Positions 6,522 to 34,986 of a stretch of 38,349 bases of DNA are shown one piece after another. The stretch lies in contig JAFUUC010000100.1 in assembly GCA_017471365.1 (NCBI GenBank), forward strand, positions 1-38,349, read 5' to 3'. Under the pieces are notes generated by a model. That model had not been told where the DNA came from, did no database searches, and worked only from the letters and a program-made list of their open reading frames with translations. The stretch is from a bacterium. GTDB lineage: Bacteria > Cyanobacteriota > Vampirovibrionia > Gastranaerophilales > Gastranaerophilaceae. The position numbers and the translations under genes are program-made. Positions within the stretch are counted from its first letter, which is position 1, and each line of letters starts with the position of its first letter.

Positions 6522-6550
6522 AAATGGCGGGTTTTTCAAACCCGCCATTT
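6522..6550 (-). terminator. Strong hairpin downstream of the giant autotransporter gene
   Basis: Perfect 13-bp arms AAATGGCGGGTTT (6522-6534) and AAACCCGCCATTT (6538-6550) with a 3-nt loop lie 22 bp past the autotransporter stop. No long T run follows on the minus strand, so it may act as a weak terminator or as an mRNA 3'-end stabiliser. Confidence 0.65.
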
Positions 6551-6571: not shown

Positions 6572-9500
6572 TTATTTTGATGCTATTGAAGATTGTTTGA
6601 TAACTTTCTTTTGTCCCATAGCAGCCATTTTTTGTTGAGGTGTCATTTCTTTAAGCACAGCTTTCTTGGCACCAGAATCAGCACTGGAAGAAGAATTACC
6701 TTCCTTACCAATTGTCCACCTGAAGCCGGCTTGTAAACCTACACCATTTCTTCCTCCATTAGTAAAGTAAGTCTGGAAGAAACCTGTAAATCTTTCACCC
6801 CAGGTTTTTCTAATACCAATACCATATTTAACAAATGGTTTTACAGACAATTCAGGTAACGCTATATCATTTGCATGAACATCTGATTTGTCCATAATAT
6901 TCCAAACCATCGATACACCAATATATGGTTGCCATCCGTTTTTCAAATTACCAATAAATTTCACACCAGGTTCAATTTGAATTGCGTGCAATGGATCAGA
7001 ATTCATTCTTACACCTGCTGCATTAGTATAATCAAATGTATTAACAAATGAATATGACATCATGTAGCTTGGTTGAATAATAAATTTGCCATGTGCAAGT
7101 TCCCAATTATATCCTGACTTAGAAGCAATACCTGCCATCAACATTGCGAAATTATCATTTCCATAGTAAGTACTTGCTTCACCTGCATTAGCACCGGCGT
7201 TAATAGTCAAGCCAGTAAAGAAGTTTCCTTTATAAGCCATACCAACAGCACCAAGAGTACCACCATTTTGGTAAATACTTATTCCATTATATGCCTGGTG
7301 AGATCCATTGTAACCAACGTATGCTCCCCACATACCATCCCAACCGTGACCTAAATCTTTCAATTCAGATTCACCACCAAAGAATGAACCATAAGCAACA
7401 TTTGAAACTTTAGGACCATTTTTCAAGTTTACTTTTTCAAACGTAGCATAAGGTCTGAACCATCCGGCGGATTTTTCGTACATTGTCTGGTTAGGATCAT
7501 AAGTAACAAAATCAGTAGTAGTTGCAGCAGCGTATTTATTTCTCAATTTTAAAGCTTGACGTTGGCTCTTAGTCATCAACATGTACATATCCATGTTTCT
7601 GAACGCTTCGTCGTAACTATTCAATTGATTCAAATATCCACCGAGTTGTGCAGCTACAGGGCTTGCAAGAATTGAAGGATTGAAACTTCTCCAATCATTT
7701 CTTCCGCTTGACGGATGAATATTCATCATTCCATCTGCCCCAAGAGTTGCCTCCATAATTCTGATAGGAGTCATTGCCTGGAATTTTCTGTTTTGTAATT
7801 CATCAGATACAACCAAACCTCTTAAATTTGTAATGTCTTTTAAGTTGATATTTGTATTATTTCTAACAATTTTATCAAGATTTGCAAGATTTACATCGGT
7901 TAGAACCTCGCTGCCTGCTTCAGATGCATTGGCAAACCTATCTGATGTCTGTGAGAATACATCAACGTCAGTTTTAACTTGAGAACCATCCGCAAAGTTA
8001 ATATTGCTGTTATATGTTGTACCAGAACCATCCATTGTATTTAATGTAGCCCCGTTTGCAACATTCAGAGTCGAATTAGTCATATTATTTTCATTTAATA
8101 AATTTAACTGACCGGAAGCAAGAGTTATATTTGCATTATTTACAGCCGCATCGATAGTGAATATTGTTTCATTTGCGGTAGAGGCTGTCCTTGGAGTTCC
8201 TGACTTACCATTCAAATCAAGAGAACCGTCTCCGTTGTTAACCCCGTTAACCGAGTTATTGACAGAGTATTTATCAGCCGTAGTATTTACATTAACAATA
8301 CCGTCCTCAATATTAATATCGGCATTGCCAAGTTTAGTACTTGAACTTGTATCACTACCTGAATTCAAGTTAACAATACCACTTTCAGCATTAACTTCAG
8401 GTGTTGTTACTAAAGTACTGATATTAGTTGTACCGTTACCTGTATTGTTGATACTGTCAATTGCTGTAATATTGCCACCATTAAGATTTGTTGTACCATT
8501 GGCAACAGTGTCAATTGTATCCGCAACTACAGTTCCGCCTGTAATATTTGTAGTAGCATCACTAGTAGTATATATGTCATAATCTACATTTACTGTTCCA
8601 CCACTAATAGTTGTTACACCATCATCCCAGGTGCTGATTGACTCAGCAGTAACTGTTCCATCTGTAATATTAAGTACACCGTCACTATCAATATACGTTG
8701 GATTAGCCGAAGTACCTAAAGTTCCTCCATTTTGGTTTAATATACCATTTGTCGTTACATAAATGTAATCAGTATCTATGTTACCCGTATTAGTAAACGA
8801 GCCATCCGCCGTAATTGGCGACGGGTAATATCCTGAAGTATCTGCACCGCTTGAACCGACAAAAATTGTATCTTGAGTGATATCTTTATCACTTGTTACA
8901 TCACCGGCAATACTTGTAACACCGTTGCTGCCTGTAATATTGGAAGCAAGAGCACCGCCGTTAAGATTTAATATACCGTTATTAGCAATTCCGTTTGCAC
9001 CGTTTGCAATCAAGTTATTAGCAGCTGATGAAACAGTCCCTGTACTTGCAATATTTATATCACCGCCTGTCGTAATCGTACTTGGATTAGTTAAGTTGTC
9101 AAGAGTTGCAGTAATTGTATCATTACCAACGTTAACAGTTGCCTGATTAATAGTTTTACCATTTGTAGATATATTACCCAAAACATTTGTTGTACCGTTG
9201 GTATTGCTGATATTAGAAGCAAGTTTACCCGTTTCAACCGCAGGTACTGCCGTATCATCAATATCTCCCGTCAAGTTCAATGTACCTGCGTTATCAATAC
9301 CTGCACTCGCAACTAAATCAGAAGCATTTGAAGTAATTGAACTGTTTGCAGTAGTTCTAATATTAGTTGCATTAACTACTGCATTGTTAATCAAGCTTCC
9401 TGTAGTTTCAGTTGCCGGGTCTGTTGAAGTATCAAGCGTTCCAACATTAACATTATTTTGAGTAATATTTTTATCAGTTGAAACATTACCTGTAATATTC

Positions 9501-12500
9501 GTTGTACCTGTTGCATTTTTAACAACAGAAGCCAAAGCTGTCGGAGTATCAGTACCTGAGGAACCTGAAAGGTTTAATATTCCAGCATTGTCAATACCCT
9601 CGTTAGCCGCAACCTTGTCTGCTTTTGTTGTCAAGCTTGCCGTACCAGAAACCGTTACAGATTTTTGTGCAATTGTTTTATCATTAGTATTTGTAACCGC
9701 ACCGAGAATATTTGTTACACCAGTTTTAGTATCTTGAGTATCATTAATATTTGAAGCGAGGTTACCTGCTGATAAATTCAAAATACCTTGGTTATCCGTT
9801 CCGGATGTTGTAACAAGTTTGTCAGCTGCAATATTCAGTGTTGCAGGAGATTCAACTGTTACAGATTTTTGAATTAAACTTCCTATCGTAGAAGTACCGC
9901 TGCTTATTGTTGTTTGACCTTTTGAAGCATCTGATGTGCTATCTTTGATAGTGTTAATAGAGTTTGTACCTGTTAAGAATACACCGTGGTTAACAGGGTT
10001 GCTCGGATCAGTTACATCAATTTCACCATCATTAATAATGTCAGTTGTATTGTCTGTCATTATAGCATTAGTCAAATTAACTGTTCCACCAGCAGTGTTA
10101 TCTATTGCAGTTTTAAAACCTGATATTGACCCATCAGTAATACCTAAAGAACCTGTTACAGGTACCTGAATACCGTCATTTGCACTATTTACCGAAGATA
10201 TGGTCTTATTATTGCCGGTTATAGACAATGAAGAACCTCCCATTTGCAACGGTCCGTTAATAGATTCATTATCAGACATTTCATAAACTTTTTGACCTAT
10301 TGTTGAAGTTATTGCATTTGTCAAATCCGTATGAGTACCTGTTAAATAACCTCTTGAACTGTCATAAGTTAACAATAGATTACCTGCACCTTCAGTTAAT
10401 CCGTGTTCGTGAGCAATAGTAGCTGTGGTCAAATCAATGTGTTCTTTTGCACTATCATCAGCTATCTGAAATTCAAATGTTGTCTGAGACGGATCAGATG
10501 TAATATTAAATTTATTAATTTGGATTTTATTAGAACCAGCTTCAGTTCCCATACTTAAAACATCAGCCTTTGCATCAGCTAAATCCGCATCTATCGCAAC
10601 TTTCAATGCACTATTAGAAGTATCAATATTACCGAGCTTAACCGTACTTGTTTTGCTATCACCTGAAACATCCAATACACCACCACCTGCTAAAATCTTA
10701 GTTGTAGATGATAAATCTATTGTATCAGTATCAGATGTATCATCGTGAACATTTTTAGCAGTTACATCAAATGTACCGGCTGTAAGCTTGATTACGTTAT
10801 CAGTAATAGAACCGCCACTTGCAAGAGTAACTTTTTCGTCACCTGATGTTGCGTTGATGTCAACAATACCGTTAGTGCTTGATTCAAGGCCTGTAACACC
10901 TTTTGACAATGTACCGCCGGTAAGCTCTAAAGTGCCTTTGTTAGCTATTGTAGCATTATCACCTGTAGCAACATTACTTGCATCTGTAGAAAGCGTTCCG
11001 CTTGAAATCTTAATATAGTTTTCAATTTGAGCAGCGTTAGTAACTGTAGCGGTTGAATTGATTACAGTTGTACCGTTACCTGAAACATTTGCTATAACGT
11101 TTCCGCCGGTTAATTCCAAAGTTCCTGACGCATTTGAAACAGTATTTGTAATACCTGATGTTGCACTTGTTACAGAAGTTGTATTTGCTCCGGCAGTTGT
11201 TAATTTTGCATCAGTACCATCGAGAGTAATTGCTTTGGAAATCAATCCAGTATTTTCATACTCACCTTTTATGTTCATTGCACCATCACCATTGATAGTT
11301 CCGGCGTTCGAACCGTTTGTAACCTTCAAAGCATCTGTTGTTTGAAGACTTGCACCACTATTTACAGTTAAGCCTGTTGCTTTAACTTCTTTAGCTGTTA
11401 CATTACCTGCTCCAATTTTAATATTACCAGTTGTAACACCTTCTTGCGTAGAAGAAGTTATATAAACATTGCTGAGTTCAACATCGCCTGTGTAAACTGG
11501 ATCATTGTTTGAATCAACTTCAGTATTGATATTAATATTATAATATTCACCATCAATATCTTCACCAAAAGAGATTTTGTTTGTATTATCTGTTGCATTC
11601 AAAGCTAAAGTGATTTGATTAGCCGAATTACCTTGCATCAAGATATCACCACCGACATCAGCAGTATTTCCGCTGAATGTAACGGCTGAATTTATAGCGT
11701 TGATTGTAACATCACCTGATGAATAAATCGCACCGCCAAGCTTTTCATCGCCTGCTTTGTTGTTATAGAATGATGAGTCAGTAATTACAAGCTTACCTGC
11801 GTTGTAAATAGCACCACCGTTTCCGGTTGCAGTGTTACCTTTTGTAGCATCACTAGAATCACCAAAAGTGGAATTTGTTATAGTTACGTTACTGTCATCA
11901 TCCGCAAAAATAGCACCGCCACCTTTTGTAGCACTTGATGTTCCGGTTACTTCGTTAGAAGTAAATGTCGCACCCGTAACGTTCAAAACAGCATCTGAGT
12001 ATATTGCACCACCAGCGTTTACAGCTTTGTTCTCAGTAAATGTAGTGCCGTTATTTATTATAATACTATTAGCTTTTGAGTATTTACCAGTTGTACTATT
12101 ATAACCAACAACAGACGGTTGACCAATTGCACCTCCAACTCCATCAGAGGTGTTACTTGAGAATGTTGCACCATTTATTGCAAGAGTTGTAATATTGTTA
12201 GTAGCATTTTCTTCAGTATTTTTATTTTGAGTCAACCAAGAATCATATATCGCACCACCACTGGCATTCTCTCCAACCGCTTTGTTACCGTTAAATACGG
12301 TATCACCTATAACTCTTGCAATAGTACCACTACCCAAAGCTAAAGCACCACCTTTATTAGCTTGGTTATTCGTGAATGTTACACCGCTATTTAGATTAGA
12401 TAAGGTAGTGGTGTTTGTGTATATTGCACCACCCATATCAGAAGCTTTGTTATTCTTAAATTCAACACCCGTACCAAAGATAGGATCATGTGAAGTGTTA

Positions 12501-15202
12501 CTATATAAGTATATCGCACCACCTCTATAATTTGCATTTACAGTATCGCCGGAATAACCTGCGGTGTTTCCGTCAAATACAACATTATCACCTATATTCA
12601 ACTGTGCATTTTGCCTTGCATAAATAGCACCACCACCTGTCGTTGTTGATGTCGTAGCTGACAGACCTGCTTTATTTGCGGTAAATGTTGTACCGTTTTC
12701 AATATTTACTACGCCCGAATTAGCATATATTGCACCACCGCTTGTATTAGCAGAGTTACTTATAAATGAGGCATTATCAATAGTAGTAACAGAAGTAAGA
12801 CCATTGCTGTAAATAGCACCTCCGTTTTGTGCGGAGTTCCCTAAAGATACAGGGTTTGCAGGGTCAGAATTGTCAACACCACCAAAAACACCGCCATTAA
12901 TTATTGCTGTGCCAGCGTTGTATAATACACCACCACTTGTGGCTTGGTTACCGGTTACGGTAACGTTATTCAAAGTTACTACACCTGCAGGATCAGAACC
13001 TGAAGCAGCTTCGTTATAAATAGCTCCGCCATTTTCACCTGTTCTGTCAATATTTTGGAATGTATCGCCGTTTACGGTGAAAGTTGCACCTTTGTAGTTC
13101 ATTACCCCTGCTTCATAAACAGACGGGTCAGAAACCAATGTACCTCTGTTGACAATTGTTGAATTGATAATTGAATCTTTAATATTCAACGTTGCACCTG
13201 CCGCATTTAAGACTGCAACAGTATTATTTGCACCCATTGTTGAGTTATTGAGGTTCAATGTACCATGGTTTTCAATTGCACCGTTTGAATCTACATTGAA
13301 ACCATCCATAATTACATTATTCATGGTTAATACTGCGGCATCACCCGCACCTTCTGATGATTCACCTGCAACAATCATACCCTTTGCACCAGATACAGCA
13401 GTAATGGTTTTATCATTACCTTCTATAGTAAACTCAGTGTTTCTGCCAATTGTTCTATTTTCATCACTTGCACTTGCAGAACCATAATTTTCACCTGTAT
13501 CAAGTACATAATCTACGGTCTGAACTCCGTTTGTTGTATTGTCTACCGCTTTTGTAAGGTCTGCGGTGTCACCTTTTACCATATTAATTATATGTTTGTC
13601 TGTACTGTCCTGAGCAAGAGTGTATTCATACCCGTTTTTATAACCACTGTATGCAGCAGTTAATTCTGTTGCATTTAAATCCGCTGTAGCTTTACCTTCA
13701 GCAAATAAATTAAATTGAGAATCCTCAGAGATTGAGATTGATTTATCAACATAAACTCTGTTAACTCCTAAAACTGCATCATCAATCGCATTTATAGTAG
13801 CTGCATTGATAGAATCGCCCCAGTCAAATGAAATCTTTGCACCATTTGTAACATTGATAGTTGCAGCACCAATTGAACTTGTACCCAAAACTTCTTCACC
13901 AAGCATGTTGGTCAATGAACCGGCACCAAGATTGATTGTACCGCCACCGTTAATACCACCATCTAAATTTGTTGTACCATTGAGATTTAAAGTACCAGCA
14001 TTATAAATATCGTTTTTGCTATAAGAACCCTCAGATCCTACTTTGTTGCCACTGAAAGTATTCGTACCACTAAGGGTTACACTCCTGCCAGCTTCATTAT
14101 AAATTGCACCACCCGAACTTCCTGCTATATTTTCTTTAAAAGTAGCATCTTTAATTGTTAATATACCAGGTTTAGATGAAGTACCGGAATTACGGATGGC
14201 ACCACCGGTATTACTTGCAATATTACCCTCGAATGTTGTACCGTCAATATCAACTGTACCTGCATTGTTAAAAATAGCACCACCATCGGACGAAATATTA
14301 GAAGAAATTTCACCGCCAATTATCGAAGTTGTTTTACCGCTTGCATTATTATAGATAGCACCACCTTTACCAGCTGTAATTGTACCATCAGGAACCACAT
14401 GCAGATCAACTGGACGATAATTTGGAGCGTCTCTCTTAATAGCATTATTGCCACTTATTGTTACTTCTTTAATAGTAAAATCAGCACCATTATTGTATAT
14501 TGCACCACCTTCACCATCTGTTGCAATATTGTCAATAATAGTAGCACCTTCAATGCCTACACTTCCAGCAGTAGCAAATATTGCACCACCATTTTTTGCA
14601 GCGTTTTCAGCCAAAGAGCCGCCATTAATGTTCAAAGTGCCGGTACTATTAAAAATAGCACCACCCCTAGTTGTTTTGACTGTAAAATTATCTCCGTCAA
14701 CAATTTTACCATTACCCGTAAAAGTATTATTAGTTAATGTTAATTTACCCGTACTTGATGCATTGTAAATAGCTGCACCTGAACCACCAGGATTTGAATT
14801 ATTTTTAGCACTATAGTTACCGGAAAAAATTGAATTTGATATAGAAGAATCTGCGGAGCTACTATTGTGAATTGCTCCACCATAATTTGAACCGCTTATT
14901 GAGTTAGCAATAAATTTAGAATTGTCAATCGCAAATGATCCATTAATGTTTGATATTGCACCACCATTTTTTGCCAAATTATTTTGAAAAACTACATTGT
15001 TTATTACAGCAGAAACCCCTGAATTAACCAACAAAGCACCACCGTTAGCTGAAATACTACCATCACTAAAGGTTTTGTTCTCTATCGGAGAAGCCACATC
15101 CGTGCCAACAATTCCACCTCCGGTTGCCCTGTCCGCATACGCTGCTGAACCTACCAACGTTGAAGCTAGTAACGTTGCTAATAATAACTTTTTCTTGTCC
15201 AT
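6572..15202 (-). CDS. Giant Pmp-like autotransporter adhesin (2876 residues)
   Basis: A surface protein in three parts. Residues 1-23 are a signal peptide ending AYA. The passenger is rich in Asn, Thr, Gly, Ser and Asp, and I see no cysteine. It carries 25 chlamydial Pmp-type repeats (GGAI or close variants, often followed by FxxN) in two blocks, about residues 20-370 and 725-1160, predicted to form a beta-helix. A second repeat type, with phrases such as GTTNITGN and DNAGILNL, fills about 1770-2140, and Thr/Asn-rich repeats run to about 2330. Residues about 2577-2832 are an outer-membrane beta-barrel of alternating aromatic strands ending GLQAGFRWTIG. A basic tail of about 44 residues follows, which is unusual because autotransporters normally end at the last strand. 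AGGAG precedes the ATG, and TTGACT/GATAAT forms the promoter. It probably serves host or microbial adhesion; the ligand is unknown. Confidence 0.88.
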   Translation of the reverse strand: MDKKKLLLATLLASTLVGSAAYADRATGGGIVGTDVASPIENKTFSDGSISANGGALLVNSGVSAVINNVVFQNNLAKNGGAISNINGSFAIDNSKFIANSISGSNYGGAIHNSSSADSSISNSIFSGNYSAKNNSNPGGSGAAIYNASSTGKLTLTNNTFTGNGKIVDGDNFTVKTTRGGAIFNSTGTLNINGGSLAENAAKNGGAIFATAGSVGIEGATIIDNIATDGEGGAIYNNGADFTIKEVTISGNNAIKRDAPNYRPVDLHVVPDGTITAGKGGAIYNNASGKTTSIIGGEISSNISSDGGAIFNNAGTVDIDGTTFEGNIASNTGGAIRNSGTSSKPGILTIKDATFKENIAGSSGGAIYNEAGRSVTLSGTNTFSGNKVGSEGSYSKNDIYNAGTLNLNGTTNLDGGINGGGTINLGAGSLTNMLGEEVLGTSSIGAATINVTNGAKISFDWGDSINAATINAIDDAVLGVNRVYVDKSISISEDSQFNLFAEGKATADLNATELTAAYSGYKNGYEYTLAQDSTDKHIINMVKGDTADLTKAVDNTTNGVQTVDYVLDTGENYGSASASDENRTIGRNTEFTIEGNDKTITAVSGAKGMIVAGESSEGAGDAAVLTMNNVIMDGFNVDSNGAIENHGTLNLNNSTMGANNTVAVLNAAGATLNIKDSIINSTIVNRGTLVSDPSVYEAGVMNYKGATFTVNGDTFQNIDRTGENGGAIYNEAASGSDPAGVVTLNNVTVTGNQATSGGVLYNAGTAIINGGVFGGVDNSDPANPVSLGNSAQNGGAIYSNGLTSVTTIDNASFISNSANTSGGAIYANSGVVNIENGTTFTANKAGLSATTSTTTGGGAIYARQNAQLNIGDNVVFDGNTAGYSGDTVNANYRGGAIYLYSNTSHDPIFGTGVEFKNNKASDMGGAIYTNTTTLSNLNSGVTFTNNQANKGGALALGSGTIARVIGDTVFNGNKAVGENASGGAIYDSWLTQNKNTEENATNNITTLAINGATFSSNTSDGVGGAIGQPSVVGYNSTTGKYSKANSIIINNGTTFTENKAVNAGGAIYSDAVLNVTGATFTSNEVTGTSSATKGGGAIFADDDSNVTITNSTFGDSSDATKGNTATGNGGAIYNAGKLVITDSSFYNNKAGDEKLGGAIYSSGDVTINAINSAVTFSGNTADVGGDILMQGNSANQITLALNATDNTNKISFGEDIDGEYYNININTEVDSNNDPVYTGDVELSNVYITSSTQEGVTTGNIKIGAGNVTAKEVKATGLTVNSGASLQTTDALKVTNGSNAGTINGDGAMNIKGEYENTGLISKAITLDGTDAKLTTAGANTTSVTSATSGITNTVSNASGTLELTGGNVIANVSGNGTTVINSTATVTNAAQIENYIKISSGTLSTDASNVATGDNATIANKGTLELTGGTLSKGVTGLESSTNGIVDINATSGDEKVTLASGGSITDNVIKLTAGTFDVTAKNVHDDTSDTDTIDLSSTTKILAGGGVLDVSGDSKTSTVKLGNIDTSNSALKVAIDADLADAKADVLSMGTEAGSNKIQINKFNITSDPSQTTFEFQIADDSAKEHIDLTTATIAHEHGLTEGAGNLLLTYDSSRGYLTGTHTDLTNAITSTIGQKVYEMSDNESINGPLQMGGSSLSITGNNKTISSVNSANDGIQVPVTGSLGITDGSISGFKTAIDNTAGGTVNLTNAIMTDNTTDIINDGEIDVTDPSNPVNHGVFLTGTNSINTIKDSTSDASKGQTTISSGTSTIGSLIQKSVTVESPATLNIAADKLVTTSGTDNQGILNLSAGNLASNINDTQDTKTGVTNILGAVTNTNDKTIAQKSVTVSGTASLTTKADKVAANEGIDNAGILNLSGSSGTDTPTALASVVKNATGTTNITGNVSTDKNITQNNVNVGTLDTSTDPATETTGSLINNAVVNATNIRTTANSSITSNASDLVASAGIDNAGTLNLTGDIDDTAVPAVETGKLASNISNTNGTTNVLGNISTNGKTINQATVNVGNDTITATLDNLTNPSTITTGGDINIASTGTVSSAANNLIANGANGIANNGILNLNGGALASNITGSNGVTSIAGDVTSDKDITQDTIFVGSSGADTSGYYPSPITADGSFTNTGNIDTDYIYVTTNGILNQNGGTLGTSANPTYIDSDGVLNITDGTVTAESISTWDDGVTTISGGTVNVDYDIYTTSDATTNITGGTVVADTIDTVANGTTNLNGGNITAIDSINNTGNGTTNISTLVTTPEVNAESGIVNLNSGSDTSSSTKLGNADINIEDGIVNVNTTADKYSVNNSVNGVNNGDGSLDLNGKSGTPRTASTANETIFTIDAAVNNANITLASGQLNLLNENNMTNSTLNVANGATLNTMDGSGTTYNSNINFADGSQVKTDVDVFSQTSDRFANASEAGSEVLTDVNLANLDKIVRNNTNINLKDITNLRGLVVSDELQNRKFQAMTPIRIMEATLGADGMMNIHPSSGRNDWRSFNPSILASPVAAQLGGYLNQLNSYDEAFRNMDMYMLMTKSQRQALKLRNKYAAATTTDFVTYDPNQTMYEKSAGWFRPYATFEKVNLKNGPKVSNVAYGSFFGGESELKDLGHGWDGMWGAYVGYNGSHQAYNGISIYQNGGTLGAVGMAYKGNFFTGLTINAGANAGEASTYYGNDNFAMLMAGIASKSGYNWELAHGKFIIQPSYMMSYSFVNTFDYTNAAGVRMNSDPLHAIQIEPGVKFIGNLKNGWQPYIGVSMVWNIMDKSDVHANDIALPELSVKPFVKYGIGIRKTWGERFTGFFQTYFTNGGRNGVGLQAGFRWTIGKEGNSSSSADSGAKKAVLKEMTPQQKMAAMGQKKVIKQSSIASK

Positions 15203-15261: not shown

Positions 15262-15290
15262 ATTATCTTTTGTATAGAGTTTTTAGTCAA
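15262..15290 (-). promoter_or_regulatory. Promoter of the autotransporter gene
   Basis: On the minus strand TTGACT (15285-15290) is 17 bp from GATAAT (15262-15267). The 5' UTR would be about 53 nt, ending in AGGAG before the ATG at 15202. The rest of the divergent spacer to 15430 is very AT-rich with no clear second promoter. Confidence 0.6.
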
Positions 15291-15604: not shown

Positions 15605-17350
15605 TTGCTAAAAAAAATATTCTATTCGATCTTAATTATAATTTTGCTCTTTTTTGGTTTTTCTTTCGCTAAAAACGGTAAAGCCTTTATGGATTTTGCT
15701 GAAAATAAGACATTTGATCTGCGTCAAGGAGTAAATATAAAAAATAAAAACTTAAGCCCTCAAGATGTTGTGATTATTGCCATTGATGATGCGAGTTACG
15801 AGTATATTCTTGACAATTACGGAGAATGGCCTTTAAGGCGGGATATTTATGCAAAAATAATTGATTATCTTGAAGCTCAGTCGCCAAAAATTATCGCATT
15901 TGATTTAATGTTTGTTAAGTCAATGAAAAATGATTCCTATGCCGATAAAATTCTTGCAGATTCATTTCAAAAATATTCAAATGTTTACACTGCTATGAAT
16001 CTCGATAACCAAGAAGAAGATCTGAGAATCTCACAAAATCTCCCACAAAAATTAGCGGTAAATGTTGATGGAGACATTTCTCCATTTAAATTCTCAAATT
16101 GCCGTGTAATCCTTCAAGATATTATAAATGCAACCTCTAATATCGGTATGATAAATGTTGTACGTTCTGATGACGGAGTTCTTAGAAGTATGCCGTTATT
16201 TTTGGATTATCAGGGTAAATATTATCCGCAATTAGGTTTGAAAGTTGCAGCAGGAGCAATTGGAAATTCCGATGTAAAAAATTTCATTATAAAAAACAAT
16301 AAACTAGAGTTTGGTAACAAAAAAATCCCTGTTGAAAATGACGGAAGTGTGATTTTAAACTGGTACGGCACAGCCGGTACTTTTGAAAACATTCCTATGT
16401 ATAAAATATTAAAAGCAGCCAAGACAGGCACTGATTCGGGCTATAATTTTAAGGACAAAGTTGTATATATAGGAGCAACGGCATCCAGTCTTTTTGATAT
16501 TAAAACAGTTCCGACTGACAGAGTTTTCCCGGGAGTAGAAGTTCAAGCAACTTATGTCCAAAATTTGCTCGACGGTAATATAATCAAGAAAAATCCTTTG
16601 TGGGTAAATATTTTAACAGATTTAGCACTAATAACAGTTACAGCCATAATTATTATGGCAACATCGTACATGCCGGCAGCAATGGGGATTCTTGCCGTAA
16701 TATACGGTATTTACATATTCATTTCATACGAACTTATGGCTCATTTTAATTTGTGGATAGAGATTGTTTCTCCATTAAGTCTCGCAATTCTTACATTAGT
16801 AGTATCCGTTATTGCAAAATACCTTATTAAATCAAAGGATTTTGACGAACAATATAAACTCGCTACTACAGATGGTTTAACAGAATTGTACAATCACAGG
16901 TATTTTCAAGAACAAATTCGCCATTCTGTCGAACACGCCAAACGTTACAATTCAGAATTTTCGTTAGTAATTATCGACATTGATTATTTCAAAAAATTTA
17001 ATGACAATTACGGTCACCAATCCGGAGATGCCGTATTAAAGCAAATATCCTCAATACTAAAACGCAATGTAAGGGTTACAGATATTGTTTGCAGATACGG
17101 AGGGGAAGAAATAAGTATTATATTACCAAATACTTCAAATCAAGAAGCAATAAATATTGCTCAAAAGCTTTGCGATATTGTAGCGTCAAAACAATTTAAA
17201 CTTGCAAATGGTAAAGAAAGTGGTGTAACAATAAGTCTCGGAGTTTCTACATATGGTCAAACAGATGGAACTACCCCAGAGGAAATAATATCAAGTGCTG
17301 ATAAACGCTTATATAATGCAAAAAATAACGGACGAAACAGAGTAAATTAA
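15605..17350 (+). CDS. CHASE2-domain membrane sensor diguanylate cyclase (GGDEF)
   Basis: A 581-residue inner-membrane protein. Residues 4-23 form a TM helix. About 35-325 is a CHASE2 extracytoplasmic sensor (PQDVVIIAIDDASY, PLRRDIYAKIIDYL and KVVYIGATASSLFD are typical). Three TM helices span about 333-411. A C-terminal GGDEF domain makes c-di-GMP from two GTP. Its active site reads GGEE (499-502) with D458 in the IDIDYFKKFND motif, so it should be catalytically active. An intact inhibitory I-site, RVTD (490-493), lies five residues before GGEE, so product feedback is expected. The start is TTG; the next in-frame ATG would remove the first membrane helix. It is probably co-transcribed with the small ORF upstream and the ATPase/TPR gene 3 bp downstream. 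The signal sensed is unknown. Confidence 0.9.
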   Translation: MLKKIFYSILIIILLFFGFSFAKNGKAFMDFAENKTFDLRQGVNIKNKNLSPQDVVIIAIDDASYEYILDNYGEWPLRRDIYAKIIDYLEAQSPKIIAFDLMFVKSMKNDSYADKILADSFQKYSNVYTAMNLDNQEEDLRISQNLPQKLAVNVDGDISPFKFSNCRVILQDIINATSNIGMINVVRSDDGVLRSMPLFLDYQGKYYPQLGLKVAAGAIGNSDVKNFIIKNNKLEFGNKKIPVENDGSVILNWYGTAGTFENIPMYKILKAAKTGTDSGYNFKDKVVYIGATASSLFDIKTVPTDRVFPGVEVQATYVQNLLDGNIIKKNPLWVNILTDLALITVTAIIIMATSYMPAAMGILAVIYGIYIFISYELMAHFNLWIEIVSPLSLAILTLVVSVIAKYLIKSKDFDEQYKLATTDGLTELYNHRYFQEQIRHSVEHAKRYNSEFSLVIIDIDYFKKFNDNYGHQSGDAVLKQISSILKRNVRVTDIVCRYGGEEISIILPNTSNQEAINIAQKLCDIVASKQFKLANGKESGVTISLGVSTYGQTDGTTPEEIISSADKRLYNAKNNGRNRVN

Positions 17351-25447: not shown

Positions 25448-25473
25448 GTTGGGCAGGTATGCCCAACCTACTA
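25448..25473 (-). repeat. Palindromic repeat between truA and rplM
   Basis: GTTGGGCA (25448-25455) and TGCCCAAC (25460-25467) form a perfect hairpin with a 4-nt loop. Its right part, TAGTAGGTTGGGCAT on the minus strand (25459-25473), is identical to 26707-26721 at the rpoA end and includes the truA stop codon. Confidence 0.75.
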
Positions 25474-26238
25474 GTATTCTACTTTCATTAAAGTTAATCC
25501 ATACGGACTAACCGTTTGACCAGCCTTACGGCGGTCTTTTGCTTCCAAAACATCTTTCATATGCTCTGGAGGCAAATCGTGTCCTTCTATTTCTAGAAGA
25601 GTGCCGACAATTGTTCTCACCATATTGTAAAGAAATCTGTTTCCAACAATATCAATAAAAACACGATCATCAAGTTTTTTAACCTGAATCTTTTCTATAG
25701 AACAAACTGTACTTGGGTTAAAAGTACCTGAACTTTTAAAACTTGAAAAATCATGCTCACCCAAAAGATAACTTAATGCTTTTTGCATTCTTTGTTCATC
25801 CGTAGGATACTTTACCCTAATTAGATCACCATCGAAAGCATTTTTACATTTTCGATTAACAAATTCAAATCTGTAATAGCGTTTTTTCGCAGACTTTTGA
25901 GCGTGAAAGCTTTCATCTACAAGCCTCAAATCGCAGACCGATATATCATCCGGAAGGATTTCATTTATATGATAAAGAAACTTTGAAGCAACAATCGTTT
26001 CATCCACATTGAAATGAGCAACCTGTCCTTTTGAATTTACACCGGCATCCGTTCTTCCAGAAAATACTGTCTTTACTTGTCGGTTTTTATTTTCGGTATC
26101 ACCGAATATCAATGTACTAATCGCTTTTTCGAGTTCTCCTTGTATAGTTGGCTTTTTTATCATTTCACCATTTTCAAATTGAATCTGGCTACCTGAATAA
26201 TTTTTACCGATATATTGAACCGTCAAAGCGTAACGCAT
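25471..26238 (-). CDS. truA: tRNA pseudouridine(38-40) synthase TruA
   Basis: A 255-residue enzyme converting U38-U40 of the tRNA anticodon arm to pseudouridine. The catalytic motif [18 protein letters not shown] contains the nucleophilic Asp in RTDAGV. Other family blocks are [13 protein letters not shown] (N-terminus), [18 protein letters not shown] and [18 protein letters not shown]. It starts 6 bp after the rplQ stop with no separate ribosome site, so it depends on coupling. Its stop TAG lies inside a 15-bp repeat shared with rpoA. Confidence 0.96.
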
Positions 26239-26244
26239 TAGAAA

Positions 26245-26673
26245 TTACACCAACTGAATAAGTGCCATTTCCGCAGCATCTCCACGTCTTGGAGGCAACT
26301 GGTAAATTCTTGTATATCCGCCATTTCTATCAGAATACTGTTTACCAATCACAACAAAAAGTTTTCTCAAAACTGTTTGAGCTGTCAACTTTTTGTCTTT
26401 TTGTGGAGCCTCAAAAATTTCTCCACTTGCCATATCCATATATTTACCGGTTTCCTTGTTGTAAATATATTTAGACGCAAGACGAATTGAATTTAAATCA
26501 CCTTTTTTAGCGAGGGAAATAACTTTTTCAGCATAAGGCTTCAAAGCTTTAGCTCTAGTAAGAGTTGTTGTGATTTCACCATGAACAAAAAGTTCTGTAG
26601 CAAGAGATCTCAACAAAGCTTTTCTTTGATCTTGAGCCTTTCCCAATTTATGTTTTCTAACTTGATGTCTCAT
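26245..26673 (-). CDS. rplQ: 50S ribosomal protein L17
   Basis: A 142-residue L17. The N-terminus MRHQVRKHKLGKAQDQRKALLRSLATELFVHGEITTT is typical, and the C-terminus has the GGYTRIYQLPPRRGDAAEMALIQL block. It is longer than most bacterial L17 (116-127) because of an insertion of about 20-25 residues around 70-97 (YNKETGKYMDMASGEIFEAP), in the loop before TAQTVLRKLF. AAAGGA precedes the ATG. Confidence 0.96.
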   Translation of the reverse strand: MRHQVRKHKLGKAQDQRKALLRSLATELFVHGEITTTLTRAKALKPYAEKVISLAKKGDLNSIRLASKYIYNKETGKYMDMASGEIFEAPQKDKKLTAQTVLRKLFVVIGKQYSDRNGGYTRIYQLPPRRGDAAEMALIQLV

Positions 26674-26706
26674 TTTATTTTTCCTTTATATATTGTCAGA
26701 CATATT

Positions 26707-26721
26707 ATGCCCAACCTACTA
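26707..26721 (-). repeat. 15-bp repeat at the rpoA stop
   Basis: On the minus strand TAGTAGGTTGGGCAT is identical to the truA-rplM copy at 25459-25473. The first TAG is the rpoA stop codon. Here the second palindrome arm is missing, so this looks like a half-element. Confidence 0.7.
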
Positions 26722-27690
26722 ACCGATTAAATCCTCATCTTCAACAGGATTTGGAGCTAAGTCCAATCCAAAGTGATGAAGTCTTTCGATAACTTCGTCA
26801 GATGACTTTTTACCGAAATTTTTAATGTTCAACAAATCATGTTCTGACTTCTTCAAAAGTTCAGACATTGAATTGATACTTGCACGTTTCAAGCAATTGT
26901 ATGCTCTAACAGACAATTCAAGTTCTTCAATTGTCATCTTTGGGGAATCCTCAGATTCAACATCAGAATTTTCTGCACTACCCAAAATAGCAGCAGACGG
27001 TTGCCCTGTTATAGAAGCAATCTGCATAAAATGTTCAATTAGAAGATTTGCAGCTTTACTTAAAGCATTTTGAACATCAACTGATCCATTAGACCAAATT
27101 TCAAGAGTCAACTTGTCAAAATCTAATGTATCACCAACACGAGTATTCTCTACATTGTAGCTTACTCGTTTAATAGGCATAAATGTTGCATCGATCGGCA
27201 ATACATCTATAGATGATTCCTTAGCATCACGAGGAACATCGTGAGGAACGTATCCCTTGCCGGATTCTACTATAACATCTGCATGGAATGAACCACCATC
27301 AGCTACAGTACAAATTAGCCAATCCGGATTAACAACTTTTACGCCAGCAGGTAATAGGATATCACTTGCTAATACAGGTCCTGGTTTGTCTACATCTATT
27401 CTTAAGTGTTGTGCTTCTTTTGACTCTGTTTTAACAACCAATCCTTTTAAGTTAAGGATCACGTCAATTACGTCTTCCAAAACACCAGGAATTGCAGTGT
27501 ATTCATGAGTAATACTTTCAATTCTTGCACTTGTAACGGCTGTACCTTCAAGACTTGATAAAAGTACACGTCTCAAAGCGTTACCGATTGTAGTACCAAA
27601 TCCGCGTTCTAACGGTTCAATAATAAATTTACCATATTGTGAACCATCTGAACTTGTTGCTGTATCAACACATTTAATTTTTAAATCCAT
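26719..27690 (-). CDS. rpoA: DNA-directed RNA polymerase subunit alpha
   Basis: A 323-residue alpha subunit. The N-terminal domain (about 1-230) carries the dimerisation and assembly motif FIIEPLERGFGTTIGNALRRVLLSSLEG and later VSYNVENTRVGDTLDFDKLTLEIWSNGS. The C-terminal domain (about 250-315) has IEELELSVRAYNCLKRASINSM and LLNIKNFGKKSSDEVIERL, the helix-hairpin-helix DNA- and activator-binding module. The acidic linker (SAENSDVESEDS) is normal. It lies between rpsD and rplQ. Confidence 0.98.
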   Translation of the reverse strand: MDLKIKCVDTATSSDGSQYGKFIIEPLERGFGTTIGNALRRVLLSSLEGTAVTSARIESITHEYTAIPGVLEDVIDVILNLKGLVVKTESKEAQHLRIDVDKPGPVLASDILLPAGVKVVNPDWLICTVADGGSFHADVIVESGKGYVPHDVPRDAKESSIDVLPIDATFMPIKRVSYNVENTRVGDTLDFDKLTLEIWSNGSVDVQNALSKAANLLIEHFMQIASITGQPSAAILGSAENSDVESEDSPKMTIEELELSVRAYNCLKRASINSMSELLKKSEHDLLNIKNFGKKSSDEVIERLHHFGLDLAPNPVEDEDLIG

Positions 27691-30489: not shown

Positions 30490-33400
30490 ATGAATAAGTA
30501 CGGGAAAGCTTTAACTGCATTAGGTGTTTTAACACTCTTAAGTGCCGCTTATATCAAGGGCATTCCGGCTGTTATTGATTTGCCTTCCCACAAACATAGT
30601 ATTGAACAAAAGATTTACGACTTATCCGGAATGATTGTCGATGTGGGGAATCCTGAAATGTCAATGGGGTTGTTTCCTTCTATATGGTTAAAATCCAACA
30701 ATCTTTCCGTAATTAATAAAGACAAATCAAAAGCCCTTGCAATAACAAATCCTAAACTTAAAATACAACTTCTGCCTTTGTTGTTTCATAAAATAAATAT
30801 TTCTGACGTGACAGCAGATAATGAAGATATTAATCTTATTTTTACAAAGGACAAAGAATTTTTTCTGGGTGACTATCCGCTAAAATTTGAAAACAAAAAT
30901 AAAAAATTCCATATTTCTTCAATAAATTTTGACGTTGGACCATATAACGTTAAACTTGAAGATAAACGCAATAATCAAAAAATAAACTTGAATGGTGAAT
31001 ACTTTTCAAATGCAATATTTGAAAATAATAATTCGCTTAAGTTTGCGACTAAGGGGAATTTTATTGTCGGAGATAAATCAACTCCTTATTTTACCGATAT
31101 TGATATAAATCTTCCGCTGAATAAATTTCATGAAGACAAATTTAAAATTAGTGCAAAAATAGAAAATTTTGACCTCGCTAGTATATCTGATTATGTAAAT
31201 ATTCTTTCAAAAGGTCTTATACAATCAACCCAAGGGAAGCTTAATTTTGTAGCAATAACAGAAGATACTAAATTTGCACATAAGAGAATTTTAACTAATA
31301 TTTCGACTCAAAATCTAATTATAAAGGGTAAAGATGATGCAGAAAAAATTCACTACAAAGATAATTTATCACTTAAAGTAAATTTTGAGACCATAGATGG
31401 TGGGATTAATTTTCAAAATACAACTTTGACAACTAAAAATATAAATGCCAGCGTTGATGGAAAATTATCCGGTATTGGGACAAAAGAACCTATATTTGAC
31501 AATTGGCTGGTTGAAGTAAAAAATGCAAGACTCGAAGAAATTTGTCAAATTATGCCTTGGGCGAGAAATCTTGTTAGAGAAATGAATTTTTACGCTTTAA
31601 AAAAATATATTTTTTATGGTGATGGAAAAGGTAAATTAGTATTTAACGGTAAAGGACGTTACCCTCATGTAAATGGTAAAGTTGAACTTCGTAATGCATA
31701 TCTTATACATCCTATCAAAAATGCTTCGGGCGGTGCAGAAGTTGATTTGAACTTTAAAGGTCAAATTATGGATGTTGATGTTGTTGTTCCGGCAGGAGGA
31801 AATCAAGTTGTAGAAGTAAAGGGCTTTGCAAAGACAGATGGCTCAAAATATTCTGAACTCGATATTACAAGTACAAATTCTGTTGATATGGCGATGGCAC
31901 ATGAAGTTTTAAATCCGCTTCATGAAATTTTAAAATTCAAACTGGGTCCTCTACCGGTAATGAAAATTAGTGGTCTTGGAGGTATAAAACTTCGCAGTGC
32001 CGGGAAAAAAGTTGATCCGCACCTTTTTGGAGAAGTAAAATTTCGGAATGCAATAGCTTCTTTTAACCAAATTAATAATCTTGAACTTACGAATGGATCA
32101 GGAGAAGTTATTTTTGAAGACACCAATATAAGATTCAAAACCTATAATGCATTAATAAACGGTTTGCCGGCTTCAATTGATGGCAAGAGCACTGTTTTGG
32201 GTAAACTCAATGTTATAGCTAAGACAAACGGTCAAGATATACCGAAAATTTTGAAAGTTATTAATACCTCAGCAGATTTGGCAGATGTGCAAAAAGTAGT
32301 TAAGCCGTTTACAAATCCTTCAGGGAAAGCCGACTTATTATTGAATATTTACGGAGAAGCAAAAGATGTTGAACACGTAAAATTTAATAAAGATCTTTTT
32401 GCAAAAGGTACGATAACACTTCATGATGCTGTTACAACTATTAAAGATACTTTTCTACCTTTAACAAGAGTGAATGGAGTTGTTAATTTTGAAAACAAAA
32501 ATGCAGACTACAATCTTACCGGTTATGTAAGAAATTCTAAAGTTGTTGTTACCGGAACTGCCAATGACAAGAATATGGATCTGAAAGCTTCCTCCGAGAA
32601 TTTTACTATATCAGACAGTTTTGATCTTTTATATCCTGATATGTATCTACCGTATAAAAATGAAATTGGGCAGTTAAAAGCGTCTTTTTCAGGTGGTTAC
32701 AAAGGCATTGCGGATTCTGAAAATCTCGATTATAACAAGGTTAAAATAAATGGTAAAATTCTTTCAAATATGGGGGCATCCTCTCCTATAAAAACTTATG
32801 GAGGAAATTTTACTATCAACAACGGTGTTTTGAATGTAGATAGTTTAAGAGGCTTTTTTAATAACAATCCGTACACTTTGTCATTCAAATCTAAAAATAT
32901 ATATGACAAAATGAAAATTTCTGATGCGACATTCAATCTACAAGGATTTAATGTCGAAACAATTAGAAATATAAAAGATCAAATAGATCAGGTCGAAATT
33001 AAAAAACTACTAGATAATATAATAGATCTGCGTGGAACAGTTGATATTAAAGGTAATATAAAAAATGGTAAAATAAATTCAGACACAAATCTTGAAAATA
33101 TTAGTTTTATATACAAACCTTACGATGTTTTGGTAAAGGTTTTAAATGGTAAAGCAAATATACGCAATAATAATTTGTACCTCGGTAATGTAAATTCAAG
33201 AGTCAGTTCAATGCCTGTATATTTAAACGGTAGCATTTCGGATATTTTAGGCAGTAAAAATGTAAATTTGTACATTAGTGCAAAACCGACACAAATGTTT
33301 TTTGATAGAGCATTCAATACAAAATCTGTTTATCCTGTTAAAGTTAAAGGAGATGTTAATTTTAATACACACATAAGAGGGAATTCAAATAAATTTTACA

Positions 33401-34986
33401 CAGATTCGACTTTAAACGTAAAAGAAAATTCTTCTCTTTATTATATGGGTGCAACTTTATCCGGAGCCCCGACAGGAACAATGAGTGACGGGGAAATTTC
33501 AACCAATCCTATTACAGTTAATGCGGATGTGGTTGTAACCCCTGATAAAATAAAAATAAATTCACTAAATTATAATCAAATTATAAGTTCACAAAATCAA
33601 AGAACTTCTTTACAAAATCAGTTAACTTCATCCGGCGAAATTTCTATTTTAAAAAATAATGTTTTAGATTTTAATAATTTTAAGATAAAAACAAACTCTC
33701 CTACTGATGCTAGAATTTTTAATGTTATTCTAAAAAAACCGACCATAAAGCAAGGTGTATTTACTTCTAATTTATTACTTAATGGTACGTCACTTGCACC
33801 TGTAATTCTCGGTGATTTAAATATAACCAGTGTTGATATTCCGCTGTTAGACGCAACAATAAGGGATATAAGCATTAAATTTGCACATGATTTAATAGAT
33901 TTAAAGGCCAAGGGAATAATTTTAACAAATGAAATTATTGCAAAAGCAAAGATTCAAAATAAAACAACTCCTCCATTTATTGTCGATGATGTACAAATAC
34001 AAACAGACTTACTTGATTTGAACGTAATTGGTAACGCATTTAATGATTTTGATGTAGATAAAATTAAACATGATAAAATTTCGCCAAACAATACTATGAC
34101 CGTGACTCCGGATCAAATCATTATTAAAAATTTAGATATAGATGCAGATAAAATCCTTATTAAAAAAGCTCAAGCAACAAATTTTAAATTAAATATGAAT
34201 GTAAATGAGGATCATATTGCCAATATAAACAACTATTCTTTTAATTTAGCAAATGGTGTGGTAGACGGCAAGATAACTTATGATTTAAATAGCTTTAAAG
34301 GTGATGCAACAATGAACATCAATAATGCAGATGCCAGCATTATTGGTGAAAACTTTTTTGATATGGTTGGACAAATGTACGGTAATGTTACCGGGAATCT
34401 CGAGGCATCTTGCACCGGATCATCAAGTGTTGAATGCCTAAAAACCCTTTGTGGGAAAGGATATTTTGAAGTTACTGACGGTAGAATGCCGAAACTTGGT
34501 TCTTTAGAATATCTTCTAAAAGCCGGTAATCTTATTACAGGTGGTATTACCGGAGTATCAATTAATGGTATTGTTGATCTTATAACTCCGTTAAAAACCG
34601 GTGATTTTGATTCAATAAGCGGCAATATAAATGTAACAAACGGGATTGCAGATGAAATCAACGTATATTCTAGTGGCAAGGATTTAAATATGTACTTAAC
34701 CGGTAGTTACAATTTACACAATCTTGTTGCTGATATGGAAGTGTATGGAAGCCTTTCTGCCGATTTCTCATCCCCTCTTGGATTTATCAGGAATATGTCT
34801 TTGAATAGATTACTAAATAAAATTCCGGGCATTAAAATTAACGAGATCAATCCAAAATCTACAAGCAATATAAATAGAATACCGAATTTTGATAAAGACA
34901 AAGTTTTACGTGTATTTAAATCCGAAATTTACGGTGACATTAATGGATCTAATTATGTTAAAAGCTTCCATTGGATTAAACACTAA
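30490..34986 (+). CDS. AsmA/TamB-like envelope protein (1498 residues)
   Basis: One N-terminal TM helix (about residues 7-25) is followed by a very long periplasmic region of repeated beta strands, typical of AsmA-superfamily proteins that form a hydrophobic groove spanning the periplasm. The N-terminal part (IPAVIDLPSHKHSIEQKIYDLSGMIVDV, then PKLKIQLLPLLFHKINISDV) matches the AsmA start. The C-terminal part (GYFEVTDGRMPKLGSLEYLL, NLHNLVADMEVYGSLS) matches the AsmA_2/DUF3971 end. The related proteins TamB, YhdP and YdbH move phospholipid to the outer membrane, so this indicates a diderm envelope. No ribosome site is seen; TATAAT at 30475-30480 is 9 bp before the ATG, so a very short or absent leader is possible. 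Which AsmA branch it belongs to is not certain. Confidence 0.82.
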   Translation: MNKYGKALTALGVLTLLSAAYIKGIPAVIDLPSHKHSIEQKIYDLSGMIVDVGNPEMSMGLFPSIWLKSNNLSVINKDKSKALAITNPKLKIQLLPLLFHKINISDVTADNEDINLIFTKDKEFFLGDYPLKFENKNKKFHISSINFDVGPYNVKLEDKRNNQKINLNGEYFSNAIFENNNSLKFATKGNFIVGDKSTPYFTDIDINLPLNKFHEDKFKISAKIENFDLASISDYVNILSKGLIQSTQGKLNFVAITEDTKFAHKRILTNISTQNLIIKGKDDAEKIHYKDNLSLKVNFETIDGGINFQNTTLTTKNINASVDGKLSGIGTKEPIFDNWLVEVKNARLEEICQIMPWARNLVREMNFYALKKYIFYGDGKGKLVFNGKGRYPHVNGKVELRNAYLIHPIKNASGGAEVDLNFKGQIMDVDVVVPAGGNQVVEVKGFAKTDGSKYSELDITSTNSVDMAMAHEVLNPLHEILKFKLGPLPVMKISGLGGIKLRSAGKKVDPHLFGEVKFRNAIASFNQINNLELTNGSGEVIFEDTNIRFKTYNALINGLPASIDGKSTVLGKLNVIAKTNGQDIPKILKVINTSADLADVQKVVKPFTNPSGKADLLLNIYGEAKDVEHVKFNKDLFAKGTITLHDAVTTIKDTFLPLTRVNGVVNFENKNADYNLTGYVRNSKVVVTGTANDKNMDLKASSENFTISDSFDLLYPDMYLPYKNEIGQLKASFSGGYKGIADSENLDYNKVKINGKILSNMGASSPIKTYGGNFTINNGVLNVDSLRGFFNNNPYTLSFKSKNIYDKMKISDATFNLQGFNVETIRNIKDQIDQVEIKKLLDNIIDLRGTVDIKGNIKNGKINSDTNLENISFIYKPYDVLVKVLNGKANIRNNNLYLGNVNSRVSSMPVYLNGSISDILGSKNVNLYISAKPTQMFFDRAFNTKSVYPVKVKGDVNFNTHIRGNSNKFYTDSTLNVKENSSLYYMGATLSGAPTGTMSDGEISTNPITVNADVVVTPDKIKINSLNYNQIISSQNQRTSLQNQLTSSGEISILKNNVLDFNNFKIKTNSPTDARIFNVILKKPTIKQGVFTSNLLLNGTSLAPVILGDLNITSVDIPLLDATIRDISIKFAHDLIDLKAKGIILTNEIIAKAKIQNKTTPPFIVDDVQIQTDLLDLNVIGNAFNDFDVDKIKHDKISPNNTMTVTPDQIIIKNLDIDADKILIKKAQATNFKLNMNVNEDHIANINNYSFNLANGVVDGKITYDLNSFKGDATMNINNADASIIGENFFDMVGQMYGNVTGNLEASCTGSSSVECLKTLCGKGYFEVTDGRMPKLGSLEYLLKAGNLITGGITGVSINGIVDLITPLKTGDFDSISGNINVTNGIADEINVYSSGKDLNMYLTGSYNLHNLVADMEVYGSLSADFSSPLGFIRNMSLNRLLNKIPGIKINEINPKSTSNINRIPNFDKDKVLRVFKSEIYGDINGSNYVKSFHWIKH

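What the first reader, a model, noticed from the sequence alone, without database searches (positions are those of the whole stretch)
6572..15202. 2876-residue Pmp-like autotransporter outside Chlamydiae
The passenger has 25 GGAI-type repeats in two blocks separated by a 350-residue non-repeat part, plus a different repeat family behind them. Pmp-style adhesins are best known from Chlamydiae. A protein this large in a cyanobacterial-lineage gut bacterium with a small genome is a heavy investment and a candidate host-contact factor.
Basis: partly seen in the sequence, partly recalled or inferred. Interest (0 to 1): 0.5.

Follow-up and report, generated by a model that had tools for sequence, protein, structure and literature searches.

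The report
Giant autotransporter of gut cyanobacterial relatives
This is a very large surface protein that exports itself through its own membrane barrel; it belongs to a big family in gut relatives of cyanobacteria whose outer parts vary a great deal while the membrane anchor stays much the same, so it probably helps the cell touch or stick to its surroundings.

Summary
In detail: 6572-15202(-) is one intact 2876-aa ORF with a signal-peptide-like start, two blocks of Pmp-type GGA[IL] repeats (10 + 13), a second repeat family (4 units, 1780-2111) and a C-terminal barrel. AlphaFold gives a 12-strand type Va barrel with pore helices (closest solved: EspP, AIDA-I, BrkA) and a parallel beta-helix within residues 300-1480. 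It is a classical autotransporter, Pmp-LIKE in its repeats but not a Pmp. Pmp-type repeats outside Chlamydiae are already published, and relatives have longer frames (to 6185 codons). The interest is the family: the barrel occurs in 90 of 117 sampled genomes of the same taxonomic family, up to 15 copies per genome; class and phylum samples added two genomes outside it. Barrels are conserved (dN/dS 0.05 against the nearest relative) while passengers differ; the two nearest relatives each carry only one of this protein's two GGAI blocks. In another genus, barrels 95-99.7% alike carry very different passengers, and one gene shared by two species is a mosaic. Of 81 relatives, a sample biased towards close ones, 69 end in a basic tail after the last strand, unusual as I recall autotransporters. 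Adhesion or contact is likely but unproven.

The parts
6572..15202 (-). autotransporter gene, 2876 aa
15134..15202 (-). signal-peptide-like start, residues 1-23 (MDKKK-hydrophobic-AYA)
   Evidence: by inspection of the sequence; no predictor was run
14003..15133 (-). passenger, GGA[IL]/FxxN block 1 (residues 24-400; motifs at 54-364)
   Evidence: Chlam_PMP PF02415 E 7.9e-25 for the whole protein
13031..14002 (-). passenger, spacer without GGA motifs (residues 401-724), second half modelled as beta-helix
11663..13030 (-). passenger, GGA[IL]/FxxN block 2 (residues 725-1180)
9866..11662 (-). passenger, middle part (residues 1181-1779)
   Evidence: strand-rich up to residue 1480 in the model, lower confidence; rest not modelled
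8870..9865 (-). passenger, second repeat family, four units at 1780-2111
8033..8869 (-). passenger, residues 2112-2390 (short GGT/GGN-type repeats by eye)
   Evidence: by inspection
7478..8032 (-). membrane-proximal segment and helical linker, residues 2391-2575; helices 2509-2540 and 2545-2560
6704..7477 (-). translocator barrel, residues 2576-2833, 12 long strands
   Evidence: TIGR01414 39.4 bits; model pLDDT 85.4; Foldseek to EspP E 1.1e-15
6575..6703 (-). basic C-terminal tail after the last strand, residues 2834-2876
6522..6550 (-). 13-bp perfect hairpin downstream (terminator-like, without a T run)
   Evidence: read from the sequence; not scanned by a program
15262..15290 (-). promoter-like TTGACT-17-GATAAT
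   Evidence: the number of such sites in the region is at chance (4 found, 3.2 expected)

Best explanation
A classical monomeric (type Va) autotransporter that displays a long beta-helical stalk on the cell surface. Inferred route: the signal peptide sends it through Sec; BamA inserts the 12-strand barrel; the passenger is pulled out through the barrel beside the pore helix and folds from its C-terminal end outward into a beta-helix whose distal part carries the GGA[IL]/FxxN rungs with exposed loops. The conserved barrel anchors and exports; the fast-changing passenger is the working part, most likely for sticking to other cells, mucus, fibre or to each other. The gene is one member of a large, variable family of this lineage.
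For: Shown: intact ORF; Pmp-type repeats; 12 long strands plus two helices before them, pLDDT 85.4, Foldseek best matches EspP, AIDA-I, BrkA, NalP; TIGR01414 in 33 of 33 barrels given; parallel beta-helix within residues 300-1480, VIA-align Z 25.6, rmsd 2.8 over 313 residues; BamA-type protein (three POTRA plus Omp85) in the same genome; against the positional ortholog L023 barrel dN/dS 0.05 and passenger parts 0.30-0.63, against L024 0.12 and 0.24-0.61; barrel family in 90 of 117 genomes of the taxonomic family. Inferred from the known mechanism of type Va secretion: export, surface exposure, folding order. Inferred only: adhesion.
Against: No Pfam barrel match for this protein even at E 10 and no autotransporter family among 45 relatives at E 1; TIGR01414 appears only when the barrel is given alone, not with the whole protein nor in the genome scan. 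Foldseek alone gave no match below E 0.001 for the passenger, the passenger model has mean pLDDT 70 and rests on 8 sequences, and residues 24-299 and 1481-2374 were not modelled. No TamB model match in the genome, while 6 of 14 control genomes have one. Synonymous sites against L023 and L024 are near saturation, so the dN/dS values are rough. No binding partner, expression or localisation data.
Confidence: 0.8

Rival explanations
1. Self-associating surface protein (Ag43-like): passengers of neighbouring cells zip together and make aggregates or biofilm rather than binding a host.
For: Ag43 chains are among the top Foldseek rows for the passenger (all E above 0.001); a CHASE2-GGDEF (diguanylate cyclase) gene lies divergently next to it.
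Against: That neighbour is found in 45 of 46 genus genomes, but an autotransporter match is seen within 25 kb on the same contig in only 3 of them (comparing; the list is capped and several contigs end nearby), so the pairing is not conserved. A shared beta-helix fold shows no function.
Confidence: 0.25
2. Surface or released carbohydrate-active protein: the beta-helix acts on polysaccharide, as PL6 lyases and epimerases do.
For: By their titles most of the 50 VIA-align rows are polysaccharide-active beta-helix proteins (alginate epimerases, PL6 lyases, tailspikes).
Against: No Pfam or NCBIfam enzyme match at E 0.01. From general knowledge such enzymes dominate the solved beta-helix proteins, so the list is expected for any beta-helix.
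Confidence: 0.08
3. Variable-surface-antigen repertoire: the main selected property is variety itself (escape from phage, predators or host antibodies) rather than a fixed ligand.
For: Up to 15 copies per genome; in G136 and G155 barrels 95-99.7% alike with passengers 37-65% alike, one pair 90%; one gene shared by two species is a mosaic; L023 has one GGA run that aligns with block 1 and L024 one that aligns with block 2, the window has both.
Against: This genome has one copy; no homopolymer of 7 or more and no short tandem repeat for phase switching in the gene; in the window's genus the barrels of paralogs are not homogenised except three copies in one genome.
Confidence: 0.2
4. Decaying or unexpressed gene.
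For: No expression data; promoter-like sites at chance.
Against: Intact 2876-codon frame, dN/dS 0.05 in the barrel against L023, RBS-like site and downstream hairpin (read).
Confidence: 0.03

Closest known systems
Chlamydial polymorphic membrane proteins (Pmp; PF02415 repeat)
   Same: GGA[ILV] and FxxN repeats, beta-helix, C-terminal barrel, paralogous family (PMC10715098, abstract and parts of Results)
   Different: No Pfam match other than PF02415, repeats in two blocks with a spacer, a second repeat family and about 1200 further residues between repeats and barrel, a tail after the barrel, not in Chlamydiae
Type Va autotransporter translocators (EspP, AIDA-I, BrkA, NalP; TIGR01414)
   Same: 12-strand barrel with pore helix, Foldseek E 1.1e-15 (EspP), 6.0e-15 (AIDA-I), 2.1e-14 (BrkA), 5.4e-12 (NalP); TIGR01414 in 33 of 33
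   Different: 10-16% identity in those fold alignments, no Pfam barrel match, 43-residue C-terminal extension
GGA/FxxN beta-helix proteins of Phycisphaerae, Methanobrevibacter, Trichomonas (PMC10715098)
   Same: same motif pair predicted to form beta-helix rungs outside Chlamydiae
   Different: whether those carry this barrel was not examined here
Antigen 43 / EtpA / Fap2 adhesins
   Same: long beta-helical proteins listed
   Different: fold resemblance only, all with E above 0.001

Membership tests
Type Va (monomeric) autotransporter | C-terminal 12-strand beta-barrel with pore helix | tested here: met
   12 long strands at model 205-456 and helices 135-166, 171-186; EspP, AIDA-I, BrkA, NalP best matches
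Type Va (monomeric) autotransporter | match to an autotransporter barrel profile | tested here: met
   TIGR01414 39.4 bits, cut-off 16, for the barrel alone; not listed for the whole protein, no match in the genome scan, no Pfam match
Type Va (monomeric) autotransporter | N-terminal signal peptide | tested here: inconclusive
   MDKKKLLLATLLASTLVGSAAYA-D by inspection; no predictor available
Type Va (monomeric) autotransporter | beta-helical passenger on the same chain | tested here: met
   within residues 300-1480: Z 25.6, rmsd 2.8 over 313 aligned; the rest not modelled. The feature is usual, not strict
Type Va (monomeric) autotransporter | last barrel strand ends the protein (recalled, from no call) | tested here: not met
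   43 residues follow; 69 of 81 relatives also have a tail. A usual trait, not a strict definition as I know it
Chlamydial Pmp | GGA[ILV]/FxxN repeats | tested here: met
   PF02415 84.6 bits, cut-off 20.6; TIGR01376 43.1 bits, cut-off 15; 24 GGA[IL]
Chlamydial Pmp | Pmp middle region between repeats and barrel | tested here: not met
   no Pfam match other than PF02415 at E 0.01; a sequence test only, the structure of that part was not compared
Chlamydial Pmp | found in Chlamydiae | tested here: not met
   this genome lies in the lineage of loci named Gastranaerophilales; the barrel profile was searched only within this phylum
Adhesin | binds a surface or cell | not testable with these tools
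   no binding data

The most novel reading that the evidence does not exclude
Gastranaerophilaceae carry an undescribed, lineage-specific system of interchangeable autotransporters: one conserved barrel, with a basic C-terminal tail that acts in the periplasm as a docking or anchoring signal, serves as a socket on which very different passengers are exchanged by recombination within and between species, giving each strain its own surface repertoire in the animal gut.
Probability: 0.3. Interest if true: 0.65.

Novelty: new member of a known kind. Interest (0 to 1): 0.42.

Why it matters
Gastranaerophilales are gut relatives of cyanobacteria with, as I recall, hardly any cultures. In the library searched no paper holds both 'Gastranaerophilales' and 'autotransporter', and the only one with 'Melainabacteria' and 'autotransporter' is a Baltic Sea review with one mention of each, seen in the listing. 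A surface family this widespread and variable on a shared barrel gives a concrete handle: it can be expressed, imaged and followed in metagenomes, and it offers a comparison with chlamydial Pmps, which use the same repeat motifs.

Tried and rejected
Phase variation by simple repeats: no homopolymer of 7 or more, no short unit repeats and no tandem array in the gene; rejected for this gene. Promoter evidence: at chance. Tail motif KKVIKx[LMI] as a genome-wide export signal: 151 pattern hits in 46 genomes against 222 for the reversed-pattern control (my sum of the rows); some hits sit at the ends of autotransporter matches; rejected for this one pattern. Homogenised barrels as a general rule: clear within G155, less so within G136, and in three copies of G034, but not otherwise in four genomes of the window's genus; in the window's own ortholog pair synonymous sites of the barrel are diverged (pS 0.62), so its likeness is due to selection. 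Genome-specific clustering of barrels: the tree is weakly supported and no column separates the two genomes, so gene conversion is not proven. A self-BLAST of residues 1200-2400 printed nothing and a first repeat model failed; searches replaced them. Sequence searches of solved structures found nothing. TIGR01414 on the own genome found no match. A fifth copy of the second repeat at 1400-1449 scored 10.3 against 9.6 for the best of 100 shuffled sequences and is not claimed. Paper searches gave nothing usable: the 15 rows listed of 2,623 do not hold 'Gastranaerophilales', and the 15 rows listed of 77 do not hold 'polymorphic outer membrane'. Papers: of PMC10715098 the outline with abstract, section 9 and part 1 of section 6 were read; all others were seen in listings only.

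Full report
Observation. The reading frame 6572-15202 on the minus strand is intact and codes for 2876 residues. It has GGA[IL] 24 times, 10 in a first block (54-364), 13 in a second (725-1156) and one stray; the looser GG[AS][ILVMF] occurs 26 times against a mean of 1.7 and a maximum of 7 in 2000 shuffles of residues 24-2540. Pfam finds Chlam_PMP (PF02415, 84.6 bits) and NCBIfam POMP_repeat (TIGR01376, 43.1 bits). The second repeat family is real: four units at 1780-2111, each recognised by a model of the other three at 41-58 bits, best of 500 shuffles each 4.0-10.9. Simple sequence tracts and tandem DNA arrays were not found, so the repeats are diverged at the DNA level.

Barrel. Pfam has no match for the C-terminal 352 residues at E 10, nor an autotransporter match among 45 barrel-region sequences at E 1. 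NCBIfam TIGR01414 matches 33 of 33 barrels, this one at 3.7e-10 and 39.4 bits over a cut-off of 16, though it was not listed for the whole protein and the scan of the own genome missed it. AlphaFold on residues 2375-2876 with 45 sequences gives pLDDT 85.4, twelve long strands (model 205-456) and two helices before them. Foldseek's best solved structures are autotransporter translocators: EspP (E 1.1e-15), AIDA-I (6.0e-15), BrkA (2.1e-14; TM-score 0.85 on the target, rmsd 2.8) and NalP (5.4e-12). This is a type Va translocator.

Passenger. AlphaFold on residues 300-1480 with 8 sequences gives mean pLDDT 70.3. Foldseek alone finds nothing below E 0.001; its upper rows are mostly beta-helix proteins as I know them. 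VIA-align of the 215 top chains gives Z 25.6, rmsd 2.8 over 313 residues with a tailspike, followed by epimerases, PL6 lyases and others, with the adhesin PfbA further down. The part aligned by many rows is roughly protein residues 525-970, so the spacer is partly beta-helix. The published analysis of Pmps (PMC10715098, abstract and parts of Results read) predicts that FxxN and GGA pack together in each rung and that loops on one face meet ligands, and it already reports such proteins in Phycisphaerae, Methanobrevibacter and Trichomonas and PF02415 in over 100 non-chlamydial species. Hence the title claim 'outside Chlamydiae' is correct but not new.

The family. The barrel is found in 44 of 46 genomes of the same genus, with 1 to 13 matches in those, in 90 of 117 sampled genomes of the same taxonomic family with up to 15 matches, in 83 of 194 sampled genomes of the class, of which 81 are in that family, one in another family of the order and one in another family of the class, and in 109 of 292 of the phylum, 108 in that family and one in the order. 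These samples overlap, and the calls do not list all unmatched genomes (91 and 163 unlisted), so I cannot say how many genomes outside the family were examined. In the named collection 79 loci were kept (the best 80 of 141 matches): 50 titled Gastranaerophilales, one Melainabacteria, two Acinetobacter and one Clostridia that I take for mislabels, 25 unnamed. The window's assembly has one copy, with the caveat of 109 contigs. Open frames run to 6185 codons, and of 60 relatives whose frame is closed at both ends inside the contig 7 are longer than 2876. Of these 60, 27 have five or more GGA[ILVMF] and 31 have none or one (shuffle mean 0.37), so GGAI passengers are one of several kinds on the same barrel.

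Change over time. Against L023, which keeps the CHASE2-GGDEF gene divergently upstream as in the window, the barrel is 89% identical with dN/dS 0.05, the passenger parts 32-51% with 0.30-0.63; against L024 the barrel is 84% with 0.12, the passenger parts 30-62% with 0.24-0.61 (synonymous sites near saturation). The tail changes faster than the barrel (0.37 and 1.33 on 41 codons). L023 has one run of 12 GGA motifs at 81-399, L024 one run of 11 at 796-1107; the window has both runs. The simplest reading is gain or loss of whole blocks. CHASE2-GGDEF is present in 45 of 46 genus genomes, and an autotransporter match lies within 25 kb of it on the same contig in three (G000, G025, G012; comparing), so the gene looks accessory at this place; the list is capped and several contigs end close to the neighbour.

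Modularity elsewhere in the family. In two genomes of another genus (G136, G155) 14 copies have a best barrel match of 95-99.7% identity, while the best match of a 400-residue passenger part is 37-65%, with one pair at 90%. Within G155 the barrel dS is 0.41-0.59 for 15 pairs, within G136 0.59-1.81 (median 1.07) for 28 pairs, between the genomes 0.38-2.75 (median 1.19) for 48 pairs; passenger synonymous differences are at saturation (pS 0.75-0.78). The six smallest between-genome values all involve one G136 copy, L113 (0.38-0.59), so L113 has a G155-type barrel. L113 and the G155 copy L122 are a mosaic: 400 codons of passenger (696 to 296 before the barrel) are 96-100% identical in DNA with pS 0.00-0.08, the next 200 codons are 75% and 86% with pS 0.58 and 0.43, and the barrel is 91-94% with pS about 0.3, no closer than other G155 barrels. 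One common history does not explain that; recombination or transfer between species does. The 5' flanks of the two genes do not match; the 3' flank cannot be compared because L122 lies at a contig end, where assembly error is the alternative. In four genomes of the window's genus the paralogous barrels have median identities of 46-59% with pS 0.64-0.72, the exception being three copies in G034 at 94-97%. So exchange of passengers is supported for part of the family and not shown for this gene.

The tail. After the last strand this protein has 43 more residues, unstructured or weakly helical in the model. Of 81 relatives 69 have a tail of 19 or more residues, rich in lysine, median net charge +5; 19 of the 69 hold PE..[KP][TA] followed by a charged or other residue and [IVM]xL, expected 0.001 on shuffling (sample biased towards close relatives). 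By eye 17 of 19 copies and 16 of 18 have one. From recall, autotransporters usually end at the last strand, whose final residues are the signal for BAM; a tail in the periplasm is therefore unexpected. One motif of the tail is not enriched genome-wide (151 hits, 222 in the control). Its role is unknown; docking to a periplasmic partner or to the cell wall is my guess.

Mechanism. Shown: intact gene, barrel and part of a beta-helix by prediction, BamA-type protein with three POTRA domains in the genome plus two ShlB-type transporters, selection on the barrel. Inferred from type Va biology: Sec export, BAM-assisted insertion, C-to-N folding outside. Guess: adhesion or contact. No TamB-family match was found in the genome, while a YhdP-like protein is coded in the window; whether it helps assembly is open.

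Verdict. An ordinary export mechanism with a Pmp-like passenger, in a lineage for which this library holds no paper naming autotransporters together with Gastranaerophilales. The interest lies in the family, not in the single giant gene.

Noticed in passing
window 30490-34986 (+): 1498-aa YhdP-like (PF13116) protein, while no TamB (PF04357) match was found in the genome
   Followed up: partly
L103 1333-3339 and L104 1321-3249 (own genome): two ShlB/FhaC-type two-partner secretion transporters beside the BamA-type protein in L102; their partners were not sought
   Followed up: no
L042, L053, L093, L094, L095, L097, L101: relatives with the same barrel whose N-terminal part looks like another, non-repetitive domain shared among them (seen by eye)
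   Followed up: no
L123 7367-8919 and L124: passenger built of about 25-codon tandem units, 73-84% alike in DNA, shared by two species
   Followed up: partly
G001:C65, G044:C13, G013:C75, G038:C1 and others: more distant barrel matches at 29-34% identity, mostly with open frames of about 2000-3500 aa; possibly a second subfamily
   Followed up: no
window 15605-17350 (+): CHASE2-GGDEF diguanylate cyclase, found in 45 of 46 genus genomes, divergent from the autotransporter
   Followed up: partly
window 25471-27690 (-): RNA polymerase alpha subunit and tRNA pseudouridine synthase genes, probably part of a core cluster
   Followed up: no
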